DNA of 9,306 bases from JAUWCW01 sp030609125 [NCBI: Candidatus Rokuibacteriota bacterium] (GTDB lineage Bacteria; JAUVQV01): contig JAUWCW010000056.1 of NCBI GenBank assembly GCA_030609125.1, positions 1 to 9,306 on the forward strand, in the 5' to 3' direction. The number at the start of each line of letters is the position of its first letter. Positions within the stretch are counted from its first letter, which is position 1. This document shows positions 4,194 to 8,391 of this stretch, one piece after another. The notes beneath the pieces were generated by a model. That model saw only the letters and a program-made list of their open reading frames with translations, ran no database searches and had not been told where the DNA came from. Made by a program: the position numbers and the translations under genes.

Positions 4194-4547
4194 ATGGTTA
4201 AGATCCCCGACAAAATGTTCTTCAGAATCGGTGAAGTAGGCCGGATCACCGGCGTGAAGCCCTACGTGCTCCGCTACTGGGAATCCGAATTCAAGCTCCT
4301 CAAGCCGATCAAGAACAAGGCGGGGCAGAGGATCTACCGCCGCAGGGAAATAGAGACGGTTCTGGATATCAAGAACCTGTTGTACAAGAAGAAATTTACC
4401 ATCGCTGGCGCCAAGAAACACCTCTCGGAGGAAAGCCGGTCCCGGGGGGGGCAGCAGATGGAACTCGGTTTTGCCACATCTCATGTCAAGGAAGCGGTCG
4501 ACAGGATCCGTGAAGAGCTCGTCGCTTTGGAAAAGGCCCTGAGGTGA
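4194..4547 (+). CDS. MerR-family transcriptional regulator
   Basis: A 117-residue protein. The N-terminal winged-helix DNA-binding domain spans about residues 8-77: FFRIGEVGRITGVKPYVLRYWE carries the helix-turn-helix and the LRYWE signature of MerR proteins, then GQRIYRRREIETVLDIKNLL. Residues about 97-116 form an amphipathic helix suited to a dimerising coiled coil. No effector domain or cysteine metal site is present, so this is the short MerR type linked to ihfA in many proteobacteria; its target genes are not known to me. The start at 4194 fits the typical 'IPDKxxFxIGEV' opening of homologs, although the local ribosome binding site (GGAAG, 3 bases away) is poor. A stronger GGGAGGAG at 4151-4158 has no suitable in-frame start near it. 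It probably shares the ihfA promoter. Confidence 0.88.
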   Translation: MVKIPDKMFFRIGEVGRITGVKPYVLRYWESEFKLLKPIKNKAGQRIYRRREIETVLDIKNLLYKKKFTIAGAKKHLSEESRSRGGQQMELGFATSHVKEAVDRIREELVALEKALR

Positions 4548-4565
4548 TCCGTCTTGCAGGCGGGG

Positions 4566-4583
4566 CGCGGTTTCTGAGCCGCG
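4566..4583 (+). other. Hairpin between the merR-type gene and tRNA-Pro
   Basis: CGCGGTT and AGCCGCG pair over 7 positions (one G-T pair) around a TCTG loop. No T-run follows, so if it terminates at all it would be weak. It may instead separate the mRNA from the tRNA precursor. Confidence 0.3.
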
Positions 4584-4596
4584 AAGGTTCGGTAAA

Positions 4597-4674
<78 letters not shown>

Positions 4675-4698
4675 TTTTTCCACCGTAAGCGGTCGTCG

Positions 4699-5352
4699 AT
4701 GACAGACTTCCATCTTGCCAGAAAAAGGATGGTCGAAACCCAGATCATCCGCCGCGGCATACGTGACCCTGCCGTTATCCGCGCCATGTCGTCGGTTCCC
4801 AGGCACCTGTTCGTGGAAGAGGCTTTCCAGGACCAGGCCTACGGGGACTTCCCGCTCCCCATCGGCAGCGGACAGACGATATCGCAGCCGTACATCGTCG
4901 CCCTCATGACGAGTTCTCTCAGGTTGACGGGAGTCGAGAGGGTACTCGAGATAGGGACCGGGTCGGGTTACCAGACGGCCGTTCTCGCCGAAATAGCGGA
5001 GAGGGTGGTCACGGTGGAGCGCATCAGCTCCCTGGTCAAAAAAACCCGCCGGCTCCTGGAGGAGCTCGGCTATCACAGAGTCGCCTGCCACCTTTCCGAC
5101 GGAACCCTGGGCTGGAAGGACTCCGCCCCCTACGATGCCATTCTTGTCACCGCCGGTTCCCCCGAGATCCCCGCGGAACTCGTGGAGCAGCTCGCAGACG
5201 GGGGAAGGCTCGTCATCCCCGTCGGCACCCGTCGCCACCAGGTGCTCAAACGGGTGACACGTGATGGGGACAGGAAGAACGTGGAGGACCTGGGAGGATG
5301 TGTCTTCGTGCCTCTTATCGGCCATTCAGGGTGGAAGGAGGAGGAGCTCTAA
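4699..5352 (+). CDS. pcm: Protein-L-isoaspartate O-methyltransferase
   Basis: A 217-residue cytoplasmic enzyme that methylates L-isoaspartyl residues in damaged proteins using S-adenosylmethionine, starting their repair to aspartate. Visible marks are the N-terminal VPRHLFVEEAF, the substrate-site motif GQTISQPYIVALM (58-70), the SAM-binding loop LEIGTGSGYQ (83-92), VTVERI (acidic residue after beta2), the SDGTLGW region (133-139) and PYDAILVTAG. The length is normal for the family (about 205-220). The start at 4699 matches the usual opening of homologs but has no clear ribosome binding site, and the gene begins only 25 bases after tRNA-Pro. In many bacteria pcm sits beside surE; here no surE is present and a decayed signalling gene follows. 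No catalytic motif is missing. Confidence 0.94.
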   Translation: MTDFHLARKRMVETQIIRRGIRDPAVIRAMSSVPRHLFVEEAFQDQAYGDFPLPIGSGQTISQPYIVALMTSSLRLTGVERVLEIGTGSGYQTAVLAEIAERVVTVERISSLVKKTRRLLEELGYHRVACHLSDGTLGWKDSAPYDAILVTAGSPEIPAELVEQLADGGRLVIPVGTRRHQVLKRVTRDGDRKNVEDLGGCVFVPLIGHSGWKEEEL

Positions 5353-5376
5353 AAGCGGGGGAAGTGAAAGAAACGG

Positions 5377-5405
5377 TTGGCTCACCGCAAAAGTTTGCCT
5401 ATAAT
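5377..5405 (+). promoter_or_regulatory. Predicted sigma70 promoter upstream of the HD-GYP gene
   Basis: TTGGCT (5377-5382), 17-base spacer, and a perfect TATAAT (5400-5405). The predicted start is near 5412. No ATG, GTG or TTG occurs in the frame of the REC-GGDEF remnant soon after this point, so a transcript from here would serve the HD-GYP gene with a leader of about 250 bases. Confidence 0.55.
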
Positions 5406-5414
5406 TGCACCGGG

Positions 5415-5447
5415 TTCGGAGGGGCGCTCGGGAGCGCGCGCTCCGAA
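5415..5447 (+). promoter_or_regulatory. Strong GC-rich leader hairpin
   Basis: TTCGGAG (5415-5421) pairs with CTCCGAA (5441-5447). Inside, GCGCTC (5424-5429) pairs with GAGCGC (5432-5437). The small internal loop has 2 and 3 bases. It begins only a few bases after the predicted transcription start. There is no T-run, so it is not an intrinsic terminator. A role in mRNA stability or regulation is a guess. Confidence 0.4.
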
Positions 5448-5665
5448 GCCGGAAAGGACAGGATTCTGTCACTCCTCACCGCCATCCTTTCACGCGAAGG
5501 GTACCAGGTCTTCCAGGCCCGAAGCGGGGAAACGTGCCTTGCCCTTGTCAGGCGGGAAGAGCCGGAAGTCGTCCTCATAGATTTTCACTCGCCGGACACG
5601 ACGCTTTACCAGGCCAAGAGGCAGGGGCGCAACCGGGTGCAGGCCTTCCAGCCGGCGGGGCAGCC

Positions 5666-7717
5666 ATGACAACCGGACCCGCGAGCCGGCTGCAGTGGAA
5701 AGTCTTTGTCTTTCTTGCCGTATCGCTCATCAGCTTCATGGGGTTGTTCGCCTTTTTCTACTCACGCTTCCTCGCCCGCCAGGTCATCGGGCAAGCCGCC
5801 TCCCATTCCGAACTCGTGGCGGACACGATACAGCTTGGACTCGTCCAGAACATGATGAGCGACAACAGGGAGGGGATCAGGCTCACCCTGAAAGACATCG
5901 TCGACCACGTAGAGATCCTGGAGGTGCTCATCTCCGACCCGGAGGGGACAATCGTTTACTCATCCAGTCCCGAGCTCGAGGGAAGAAACCTCAGACACAC
6001 CTCCTTCGCGGGCATTCAGGAGAAAGATGGGTGGAAGGCGGTGAAGGGCGAAGATGGGGAACCGGGGGAGATATACCGCTTCAGCCCCATACCGAACCGG
6101 CGGACATGCCACGCATGCCATCCCCCGGCCCGGGCGGTGCTGGGCGCCGTCGCCATGCGGCTTTCCCTCGAAGGTCCCGAAGAGCTCATTCTGACCAACA
6201 GGTACCTTTTCCTGGGGCTCGTCTCTATCCTGCTCATAGTGCTCTTTGTCGTCAATGCCCGGTTTTTCTCAAGAAACGTGAATCGTCCCATCGAGGTGCT
6301 GATGGAGCGCTTCCGCCAGGTGGGTGAGGGGAACCTGGAGAGCTCGCGTGCGGCTCCCCCGGCGAGGCCCGACGAGCTTGGAATTCTGAGCATGCATTTC
6401 GAAGAGCTCATCGGGACCATCAAGGATCTTCACGAGCGCGAGACGCAAAAGGAAAAGGAAGTTGTGCTCCTGCAGCGCGACAGGGATCACCAGGACGAGC
6501 TGGAGAGGATGAACAGGCAGCTCAGCGAGAGGGTGGAGAGGCTGGACGAGGCCAACAGAAGGATCAACACTCTCGCCAGGCAGCTGGAAGAAAAAAACGA
6601 ACGCCTTGAGAGCGCCGTGAAGAACATTTCAGCCCTGAACAGGGTTGGGGTTGCGCTGAGCTCGGAGCTCGATCTCGACAATGTTGCCAAGCTCCTGATT
6701 AACATATCCGCCAAGGGGCTCCGGTCCGAGATCGGCTATATGATGATCATGGACGAACAGGGCGAAAAGCTCCAGATGAGGTCCTGGACGGGGATGAGCG
6801 AGGGTTTTGACCCCAGCCGCACCGTCAGCCCGGGCGAGAGCGTTTCGGGGATGGTAGCCAAGACGGGGCAGCCTCTGCTCATACCCGCCGTCGACCGCTC
6901 TGGGGGAATCAAGAGCGAAAGCCGCTACGGCTTCACCAGGCGTTCGGTGATCAGCGCTCCCATCAAGATCAAGGACAAGCTTCTCGGGGTAATCGAGCTT
7001 ACCAACAAGAAGGGGGCGGAAAGTTTCAACGAGGAGGACCTGCAGATGCTGCAGTCCATCGCCAACCAGGCTGCCGTCGCCATCGAAAACGCCAACCTCT
7101 ACCGTCAGGTGCAGAAGAGTTACTTCGACACCATCAAGGCTCTCGTGCAGGCGGTCGAAGAAAAGGACCCCTACACACGGGGCCATTCGGAGAGGGTTAC
7201 CACCTTCAGCGTTAAGATAGCGGAGAAAATGGGGTTCTCGTCCAGGCAGGTGCAGGCCATCCGGTACGGAGGGGTTCTTCACGACGTCGGCAAGATCGGC
7301 ATAAACGTCAACATCATCCAGAAGCCGGGGAGGCTCACCCAGGAGGAGTTCACGCTGATCAAGAACCACCCCCTGATCGGCGAGCGCATCATCAGCCCCA
7401 TAGCGTTCCTGAAGGACGTTCTGCCCGTCGTCAGCCAGCACCACGAACGCTATGACGGCAAAGGGTATCCTCTGGGACTGGACGGTTCGAAAATGGCCCC
7501 GGAGGCGCGTGTCCCGGCCGTAGCGGACGCCTACGATGCGATGAGAACAGTCCGACCCTACCGGAACCCCCTCCCGCGGAAGGAAGCCATTGCCGAACTG
7601 CGGCGCTGCTCGGGTACACAATTTGATCCAATTGTGGTAGAACATTCCCTCGAGATTCTCGATGAGGATCCGGAAATTCATAAACTGGAAGAGAGTTTGT
7701 CGAAAGTCGGGATGTAG
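5666..7717 (+). CDS. Membrane HD-GYP c-di-GMP phosphodiesterase with HAMP, GAF and a c-type haem motif
   Basis: A 683-residue sensor. Transmembrane segments lie at about 12-35 and 179-199, enclosing an extracytoplasmic domain that has a Cache/PAS-like stretch (ISDPEGTIVYSSSPELEGR) and then TCHACH, a CxxCH haem c attachment site at 148-152. After the second membrane segment come HAMP (about 200-255), a coiled coil (about 256-318), GAF (about 325-475) and HD-GYP (about 485-670). HD-GYP metal and signature residues are present: GHSER (H507), HDVGKIG (H539, D540), NHP (H568), HHERYDGKGYP (592-602) and DAYDAM. Enzymes of this class hydrolyse c-di-GMP, so it should lower c-di-GMP in response to a redox or gas signal at the haem (inferred). 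The chosen ATG overlaps the stop of the REC-GGDEF remnant (ATGA), with GGGG upstream. The frame extends further upstream but that part looks non-coding. The stop codon lies within tRNA-Pro(CGG). Confidence 0.92.
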   Translation: MTTGPASRLQWKVFVFLAVSLISFMGLFAFFYSRFLARQVIGQAASHSELVADTIQLGLVQNMMSDNREGIRLTLKDIVDHVEILEVLISDPEGTIVYSSSPELEGRNLRHTSFAGIQEKDGWKAVKGEDGEPGEIYRFSPIPNRRTCHACHPPARAVLGAVAMRLSLEGPEELILTNRYLFLGLVSILLIVLFVVNARFFSRNVNRPIEVLMERFRQVGEGNLESSRAAPPARPDELGILSMHFEELIGTIKDLHERETQKEKEVVLLQRDRDHQDELERMNRQLSERVERLDEANRRINTLARQLEEKNERLESAVKNISALNRVGVALSSELDLDNVAKLLINISAKGLRSEIGYMMIMDEQGEKLQMRSWTGMSEGFDPSRTVSPGESVSGMVAKTGQPLLIPAVDRSGGIKSESRYGFTRRSVISAPIKIKDKLLGVIELTNKKGAESFNEEDLQMLQSIANQAAVAIENANLYRQVQKSYFDTIKALVQAVEEKDPYTRGHSERVTTFSVKIAEKMGFSSRQVQAIRYGGVLHDVGKIGINVNIIQKPGRLTQEEFTLIKNHPLIGERIISPIAFLKDVLPVVSQHHERYDGKGYPLGLDGSKMAPEARVPAVADAYDAMRTVRPYRNPLPRKEAIAELRRCSGTQFDPIVVEHSLEILDEDPEIHKLEESLSKVGM

Positions 7718-7784
7718 CGCAGCCTGGTAGCGCACCAGTTTCGGGAACTGGGGGCCGCTGGTTCAAATCCAGTCATCCCGACCA
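7708..7784 (+). tRNA. tRNA-Pro, anticodon CGG
   Basis: A complete 77-base tRNA with encoded CCA. The acceptor stem is CGGGATG/CATCCCG, the anticodon stem CCAGT/ACTGG has loop TTCGGGA, and the anticodon CGG at 7742-7744 reads CCG. The T arm is GCTGG-TTCAAAT-CCAGT. Its first 10 bases overlap the end of the HD-GYP gene: tRNA positions 8-10 (TAG) are that gene's stop codon. No separate promoter is evident in front of it, so it may be processed from the HD-GYP transcript. It is closely similar to the tRNA-Pro(GGG) at 4597 in the acceptor, D and T arms. Confidence 0.96.
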
Positions 7785-7811
7785 CTTTTCCGCCGTTCAC
7801 GCTTCCTGCAA

Positions 7812-7833
7812 CCCCGCGGGCCCGCCGACGGGG
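7812..7833. other. GC-rich inverted repeats after tRNA-Pro(CGG)
   Basis: In the 106-base gap before the LOG-like gene, CCCCG (7812-7816) can pair with CGGGG (7829-7833), and a perfect palindrome GCGGGCCCGC (7816-7825) lies inside. The two foldings compete. No T-run follows, and I see no convincing promoter in this gap. Confidence 0.25.
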
Positions 7834-7890
7834 AAAAGCGGTCCGACGGCATCGAGGAAGGAATCGGACGGGAGCGTAAAGGGGGGAGCG

Positions 7891-8391
7891 ATGACCGTGC
7901 AGGTCGGCATTATCGGCGCGGGAACCGCCGATGAGAGACTGCGGGCCCTGGCCCGGGAGGTCGGGAATCTGGCGGCCCGCAGAGGCTGGATCGTCGTCTG
8001 CGGAGGACTCGGAGGAGTGATGGAAGCCGCCAGTGAGGGGGCGACGAAGGCGGGGGGTCTCGTGGTGGGTATTCTGCCCGGCCCCTCACCAGACGGAGGG
8101 AATCCGCACCTCACTGTCGCTCTCGCCACGAACATGGGGCACGGGCGCAACGCGATCATTGCCCAGTCCGCGGATGTTCTCATCGCCGTCGGCGGCGGGT
8201 ACGGCACGCTCTCCGAAATGGCGCTGGGACTGAAGATGAAAAAGCCCGTCGTATCCCTGGAATCGTGGCGGCCCGATCCTGCCGTCATCGTTGCCGAGAC
8301 GGCGTCCGAGGCGATCGCCGCCGCCGCGGCCGGGGCAGGCGTCAAAGCGGGAGAAACCGGAAAGGAGAGCCAAAGTTGGTTGAAACCCTGA
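7891..8391 (+). CDS. LOG-like Rossmann-fold protein (TIGR00725 / SLOG type)
   Basis: A 166-residue protein of the SLOG/lysine-decarboxylase-like superfamily. Visible motifs are VGIIGAG (5-11), the [10 protein letters not shown] loop (37-46), HGRNAII (84-90) and [10 protein letters not shown] (100-109), corresponding to the PGGxGTxxE nucleotide-binding motif of LOG enzymes but with Gly in place of Pro. LOG proteins hydrolyse cytokinin riboside monophosphates or AMP to the free base and ribose 5-phosphate. For the TIGR00725 branch no activity is established to my knowledge, so the substrate is unknown. The start is supported by AGGGGGGAG just upstream. The C-terminus (about 140-154) is alanine-rich and low in complexity. 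Its last 16 bases overlap the start of apt, indicating one operon with coupled translation. Confidence 0.85.

What the first reader, a model, noticed from the sequence alone, without database searches (positions are those of the whole stretch)
5364..5669. In-frame scar of a receiver-GGDEF protein translationally coupled to an intact HD-GYP gene
Seen: half a receiver domain ending LIDFHSPD runs directly into TLYQAKRQGRNRV, the end of a GGDEF domain, in one open frame whose TGA overlaps the next ATG. Known: response regulators with GGDEF output make c-di-GMP and HD-GYP proteins degrade it. Inference: an ancestral synthase/phosphodiesterase pair lost its synthase by an internal deletion that kept the frame and the coupling junction. 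Frame retention hints that translation through this region still helps express the HD-GYP protein, or that the deletion is recent.
Basis: partly seen in the sequence, partly recalled or inferred. Interest (0 to 1): 0.6.

Follow-up and report, generated by a model that had tools for sequence, protein, structure and literature searches.

The report
Remnant of a lost c-di-GMP synthase
Just before an intact enzyme gene that should break down the bacterial signal c-di-GMP lie the two worn ends of a gene that once made that signal; a related genome still has that gene whole at the same spot, so this looks like ordinary gene loss in which the reading frame happened to stay open.

Summary
Frame 5364-5669 joins part of a receiver (REC) domain to the C-terminal end of a GGDEF domain, and its TGA overlaps the ATG of an HD-GYP gene (5666-7717). 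The deletion reading is supported: the only other genome held from this phylum (G001) has nearly the same gene order and an intact 501-residue REC-GAF-GGDEF gene here. The scar aligns to its residues 25-69 and 480-499, so about 410 codons are missing. No other ortholog of it was found in the window's genome.

(1) The 'ancestral synthase/phosphodiesterase pair' is not supported: G001 has no HD-GYP gene here, and two full-length homologs found elsewhere have no GGDEF gene within 1.5 kb. (2) The remnant has also lost its start: REC strand 1 and the acidic pair are gone, and a promoter-like site and a strong hairpin stand there. An open frame is therefore weak evidence for translation. A simulation fits a young lesion (neutral divergence under about 0.2 per site) or continued constraint; these cannot be told apart. 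Most likely it is neutral debris that now forms part of the HD-GYP gene's 5' leader. Low interest; a new instance of a known kind.

The parts
4699..5352 (+). pcm (protein-L-isoaspartate O-methyltransferase), syntenic upstream neighbour
   Evidence: Pfam PCMT E 1.8e-66; 61% identical to G001:C243:24277-24906
5364..5669 (+). open frame of the remnant, from GTG 5364 to the TGA that overlaps the HD-GYP ATG (the frame is also open upstream, to ATG 5298 inside pcm)
   Evidence: of ATG, GTG, TTG and CTG, the frame holds GTG 5364, CTG 5466 and GTG 5637
5377..5405 (+). promoter-like site TTGGCT-17-TATAAT, where the start of the ancestral REC gene would be
   Evidence: 10 of 12 consensus matches; 1 site found against 0.7 expected in 4500-7900, so weak
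5410..5452 (+). strong hairpin; its 3' arm ends about where receiver similarity begins
   Evidence: 5408-5480 folds at -39.1 kcal/mol (a second small stem included), z -3.9, 0 of 200 shuffles as stable; no other match over 18 bases in the genome; no Rfam family
5463..5597 (+). remaining part of the receiver domain (helix 1 to strand 3, phospho-acceptor Asp of LIDF kept; strand 1 and acidic pair missing)
   Evidence: 18 of 45 residues identical to G001
5595..5603 (+). deletion junction; about 410 codons (G001 residues 70-479) absent
   Evidence: alignment of both ends to the G001 protein
5595..5654 (+). C-terminal end of a GGDEF domain (DTTLYQAKRQGRNRVQAFQP)
   Evidence: 12 of 20 identical to G001 residues 480-499; PRK09894 end match
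5666..7717 (+). intact HD-GYP phosphodiesterase gene, 683 aa: membrane sensor, HAMP, coiled coil, GAF, HD-GYP
   Evidence: HD_5 E 2.5e-35, GAF_2 E 2.4e-18, HAMP E 9.4e-9; HDVGK at residue 539 and GYP at 600
6107..6121 (+). CHACH (CxxCH) in the N-terminal sensor, a possible c-type heme site
   Evidence: CxxCH also present in both nearly full-length homologs
7708..7784 (+). tRNA-Pro(cgg), syntenic downstream neighbour; overlaps the HD-GYP 3' end by 10 nt

Best explanation
The stretch 5364-5669 is what is left of a REC-GAF-GGDEF diguanylate cyclase gene that once stood between pcm and tRNA-Pro(cgg). An internal deletion removed about 410 codons, from just after receiver strand 3 to the last 20 or so codons of GGDEF, and happened to keep the frame (shown by synteny and two-ended alignment, with one relative). 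The original start of the gene is also lost or replaced by DNA holding a promoter-like site and a hairpin (shown as absence of strand 1; the cause is not known). The HD-GYP gene behind it is intact. It is inferred to have come to this locus separately and to be transcribed from the 5377-5405 site and/or by read-through from pcm, with the remnant as a passive leader. A little coupling across ATGA is possible but not needed. The net inferred effect at this locus is a switch from making c-di-GMP to degrading it.
For: Nearly the same gene order in G001: EF-G, IHF-like, MerR, tRNA-Pro(ggg), pcm, [REC-GAF-GGDEF], tRNA-Pro(cgg), APRT-like phosphoribosyltransferase, tRNA-Arg(cct) (domains). Both ends of the scar align to that protein far above shuffles, and it has the highest combined score (140; next 128) of the 14 rows printed. 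No full-length ortholog was found in the window's genome: the best hit is 35% (C252), and that protein has its own ortholog in G001 at 57%. Only residues matching Pfam positions 10-54 of REC remain, and the other two frames give no Pfam match. The frame is coding-like over 5451-5666 (score 12.0; in-frame control mean 20.2, sd 6.7; shifted frames mean -32.3) and less so over 5353-5450 (1.5 over 32 codons). No HD-GYP gene is at the G001 locus.
Against: Only one relative is available, so which state is ancestral rests on one comparison plus the fact that the scar is a partial gene. With the 79-residue scar as query, the syntenic protein was only the fourth-best match in G001, and by tail alone the paralog C252 scores higher (67 against 61). 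C316, the second hit to the G001 protein (31%), was not tested for an ortholog of its own. The gene order is not identical: the window has an SLOG-family gene (7891-8391) between tRNA-Pro(cgg) and the phosphoribosyltransferase that G001 lacks. Frame and codon bias are well kept, as expected also if the stretch were still translated, and the leader 5353-5450 scores higher in this frame than in the other two. The promoter-like site is no more than chance expects. An assembly error cannot be excluded without reads.
Confidence: 0.72

Rival explanations
1. The remnant is still translated, from GTG 5364, and serves as a leader whose terminating ribosomes restart at the overlapping ATG of the HD-GYP gene (translational coupling).
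For: ATGA overlap; frame open and coding-like for 72 codons. Neutral drift of 0.3 substitutions per site would leave both properties in only 2% of simulations. Another c-di-GMP pair in this genome has its GGDEF and HD-GYP frames separated by a single stop codon (C214).
Against: The original start and receiver strand 1 are gone, and the only usual in-frame start left before the receiver part, outside pcm, is GTG 5364. A transcript from the 5377-5405 site would not contain it (inference). At drift of 0.05 per site, 61% of simulations keep frame and bias without selection. The other two forward frames are also largely open here.
Confidence: 0.15
2. It is a real small protein of about 100 residues, not a scar.
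For: Open frame with coding-like composition.
Against: Half a receiver without strand 1 or acidic pair; low-confidence single-sequence model, mean pLDDT 62 and pTM 0.52. 41 of 60 genomes had a match at E 0.001, but no listed match other than the window itself spans the whole 79-residue query; the furthest-reaching end at residues 76 and 74 and lie in frames of 791 and 741 residues. An intact long gene sits at the syntenic place.
Confidence: 0.05
3. The deletion is an assembly artefact (for example a join across strain variants in a metagenome), and the organism has an intact gene.
For: The window is one whole short contig of a 376-contig assembly; reads were not available.
Against: No second contig of the bin holds a near-identical receiver half, GGDEF tail or full-length gene, as a chimera of collapsed copies within this bin would require. 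The N-terminal loss would need a second error. A chimera with DNA of another organism is not excluded by this.
Confidence: 0.08

Closest known systems
REC-GAF-GGDEF gene of G001 (C243:22713-24215, minus strand)
   Same: Same place in nearly the same gene order; both ends of the scar align to it
   Different: 501 residues and intact, with GGEEF and an RxxD inhibitory site (both read by eye); no HD-GYP gene follows it
PleD-type response-regulator diguanylate cyclases (NCBIfam PRK09581)
   Same: Best named NCBIfam family for the receiver half of the scar (E 9e-8)
   Different: The scar lacks strand 1, the acidic pair, the second half of the receiver and the catalytic GGDEF core; its score is far below the family cutoff
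Truncations and deletions in c-di-GMP genes in enterobacteria (review PMC10333796; passages seen)
   Same: Loss of part of a c-di-GMP turnover gene by deletion
   Different: The ycgG cases described there leave a working enzyme; here the catalytic domain is gone
GGDEF and HD-GYP tandem of this genome (C214) and of G001 (C313)
   Same: A synthase gene followed directly by a phosphodiesterase gene
   Different: Both frames look intact there (motif scan and reading by eye), and it is a different locus

Membership tests
Gene remnant (pseudogene) of a REC-GAF-GGDEF diguanylate cyclase | Intact homolog at the same genomic place in a relative | tested here: met
   one relative only
Gene remnant (pseudogene) of a REC-GAF-GGDEF diguanylate cyclase | Both ends align to that homolog with the middle missing | tested here: met
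Gene remnant (pseudogene) of a REC-GAF-GGDEF diguanylate cyclase | Relaxed selection on the remaining codons | tested here: inconclusive
   Differences by codon position: scar REC 19/20/29 over 45 codons, scar tail 4/7/10 over 20; intact pair C252/C184 REC 10/6/19 over 45; pcm 65/53/117 over 214; MerR 37/24/59 over 117. More second-position change, but few codons and no formal test; simulation allows recent neutrality
Functional diguanylate cyclase | GG(D/E)EF active-site motif | tested here: not met
   Absent from the frame, read by eye
Functional receiver domain | Strand 1 with acidic pair, phospho-acceptor Asp, later Lys | tested here: not met
   Only profile positions 10-54 of 111 present; Asp kept, the rest missing
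HD-GYP phosphodiesterase (5666-7717) | HD and HHExxDGxGYP motifs in an HD_5 domain | tested here: met
   motif wording recalled; enzyme activity not testable here
Translationally coupled gene pair | Overlapping stop and start | tested here: met
   ATGA at 5666-5669
Translationally coupled gene pair | Expression of the second gene depends on translation of the first | not testable with these tools
   needs a reporter or ribosome profiling

The most novel reading that the evidence does not exclude
A dead diguanylate cyclase gene has been turned into a leader that controls its opponent: the promoter-like site, 5' hairpin and in-frame remnant together set how much HD-GYP phosphodiesterase is made, so that the ruin of a synthase gene regulates c-di-GMP breakdown.
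Probability: 0.07. Interest if true: 0.5.

Novelty: new member of a known kind. Interest (0 to 1): 0.2.

Why it matters
It is a fairly clear example of a c-di-GMP locus changing from synthesis to (inferred) degradation in a phylum with only two genomes held here. It also shows that a neat in-frame scar beside an intact opposite-acting gene need not mean that the two were once a pair: the relative has only the synthase.

Tried and rejected
Riboswitch in the leader: the only Rfam matches in the window at gathering score are three tRNAs. Fold of 5412-5700 as a structured leader: no more stable than shuffles (z 0.32); only the stretch with the hairpin at 5410-5452 stands out. Hairpin or promoter as a repeated mobile element: the two other matches in the genome are 18 and 15 bases long, E 0.4 and 0.8. 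Missing receiver N-terminus hidden in another frame: no Pfam match up to E 1 in the other two frames. Direct repeats that would explain the deletion or an insertion of the HD-GYP gene: none in 5300-5720; the eight families in 5300-7900 I judged to be chance. Relatives in GTDB contigs: the scan confirmed one distant hit over the GAF region only. Structure of the 100-residue frame: low confidence, single sequence, used only to say that no confident fold is seen. Paper searches (12 of 22, 7 of 7 and 3 of 3 papers listed): I saw no title or abstract about this locus; only PMC10333796 was opened, as found passages. One search printed wrong numbers for the C252/C184 pair because I took the locus in the wrong orientation; one search replaces them. 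One search stopped half-way on a missing file; its first part (base composition by codon position) ran.

Full report
WHAT IS THERE. The frame 5364-5669 exists as described and ends in a TGA (5667-5669) that overlaps the ATG (5666-5668) of an open HD-GYP gene, 5666-7717. Its first recognisable part is a receiver segment; Pfam Response_reg matches only profile positions 10-54 of 111, E 3.3e-5 to 6.4e-5 for two query lengths, below the curated score cutoff. NCBIfam gives PleD for residues 36-78 (E 9e-8) and, independently, the end of a diguanylate cyclase model for residues 66-95 (E 0.011), both far below the family cutoffs. The 24-residue tail alone gives no Pfam match.

THE SYNTENIC RELATIVE. 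The window is one whole contig of a 2.3-Mb genome in 376 contigs. Searches of its order, class and phylum each returned two genomes, itself and G001. In G001 the pcm ortholog (61%) lies in nearly the same gene order, with EF-G, an IHF-like gene, MerR and tRNA-Pro(ggg) before it, and tRNA-Pro(cgg), a phosphoribosyltransferase (APRT by recall) and tRNA-Arg(cct) after it. One difference besides the scar and the HD-GYP gene: the window has an SLOG-family gene (7891-8391) that G001 lacks there. Between pcm and tRNA-Pro(cgg), G001 has one 501-residue gene with REC (E 4.1e-24), GAF (8.2e-24) and GGDEF (1e-47). The scar aligns to its residues 25-69 (18 of 45 identical) and 480-499 (12 of 20 identical); the part between, about 410 codons, is missing. 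Shuffled versions of the two pieces reach at most 47 and 40 against observed scores of 79 and 61 (1000 shuffles each). Of the 14 rows printed for GGDEF-type frames in the loci then held, the syntenic gene has the highest combined score (140; next 128; one row, L051, is a clipped copy of the same gene). Against this: by the tail alone the paralog C252 scores 67 to its 61, and with the 79-residue scar as query three other G001 places score better.

IS THE GENE REALLY GONE? The best full-length match to the G001 protein in the window's genome is C252 at 35%, then C316 at 31%. C252 has its own G001 ortholog, C184, at 57%, so it is a paralog; C316 was not tested in this way. No second near-identical copy of the scar exists in the bin, which is estimated 92% complete.

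A SECOND LESION. The intact homologs G001 C243, C252 and C184 read VLIVDDD, LVLVVDDE and LILVVDDE before the segment at which the scar begins to align. The scar has none of this, and the other two frames give no Pfam match. In its place lie a TTGGCT-17-TATAAT site (1 found, 0.7 expected) and a strong hairpin at 5410-5452 (z -3.9 for 5408-5480); neither recurs in the genome beyond 18 bases. Of ATG, GTG, TTG and CTG, the frame holds GTG 5364, CTG 5466 and GTG 5637, besides ATG 5298 inside pcm.

AGE OR CONSTRAINT. Over 5451-5666 the frame scores 12.0 nats by the window's codon usage; 130 in-frame control windows average 20.2 (sd 6.7, lowest -4.5) and 260 shifted windows average -32.3 (highest -16.5) (controls come from the training genes, so they are somewhat flattered). 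The leader 5353-5450 is intermediate: 1.5 over 32 codons in this frame, -6.8 and -11.2 in the other two. Under neutral drift, the chance of keeping both an open frame and such a score is 0.61 at 0.05 substitutions per site, 0.36 at 0.1, 0.10 at 0.2 and 0.02 at 0.3 (substitutions only, no indels). So the loss is young or the frame is constrained; the data do not choose. Second-position changes are relatively high in the scar (19/20/29 over 45 codons; tail 4/7/10 over 20) compared with an intact receiver pair (10/6/19 over 45), pcm (65/53/117 over 214) and MerR (37/24/59 over 117), which leans to relaxation, without a formal test.

THE HD-GYP GENE. It has HAMP, GAF and HD-GYP domains, the HDVGK and GYP motifs, and CHACH at residue 148 of its N-terminal part. 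G001 has no HD-GYP gene at this locus and its best match elsewhere is 36% over residues 286-660 only; the N-terminal part matches in G001 at 23%. In 386 genomes, 42 (the window's own among them) have a match at E 1e-75 or better; only three candidates per genome were scored, so this is a lower bound. Two, G277 and G309, match nearly full length (34% and 32%), both with CxxCH. Neither has a GGDEF gene within 1.5 kb, and of 28 loci from that search examined (the window's own left out) one, L091, has one directly upstream (a loose motif scan). In an earlier scan of the same kind, L024 has a GGDEF frame downstream of its HD-GYP gene. A GGDEF/HD-GYP tandem does exist elsewhere, at C214 in this genome and C313 in G001.

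CONCLUSION. A partly deleted REC-GAF-GGDEF gene, most likely neutral debris, forms the upstream neighbour and probably the leader of an intact HD-GYP gene that is inferred to have arrived separately. Translational coupling through the remnant is possible but not shown.

Noticed in passing
window 6107-6121: CHACH in the membrane sensor of the HD-GYP protein suggests a periplasmic c-type heme sensor driving c-di-GMP breakdown; two nearly full-length homologs in distant genomes (L085, L086) also carry CxxCH.
   Followed up: partly
window 7708-7717: The last 10 nt of the HD-GYP gene, stop codon included, lie inside tRNA-Pro(cgg).
   Followed up: no
L079 and L035 (G000:C214): Read by eye: a receiver-like frame ends in a TGA directly before a GAF-GGDEF frame, which is followed after one stop codon by an HD-GYP gene, an apparently intact, tightly packed c-di-GMP operon in the same genome.
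   Followed up: partly
L081 and L053 (G001:C299): A second pcm-like gene in G001 also stands next to a GGDEF gene.
   Followed up: no
L054 10217-10230 (minus strand): TATACT ends 8 nt before the ATG of the intact REC-GAF-GGDEF gene, as for a leaderless transcript; a TATAAT stands in the matching gap of the window.
   Followed up: no
window 7891-8391: An SLOG-family gene (LDcluster4, E 7.3e-42) lies between tRNA-Pro(cgg) and the phosphoribosyltransferase gene; G001 lacks it at this place.
   Followed up: no
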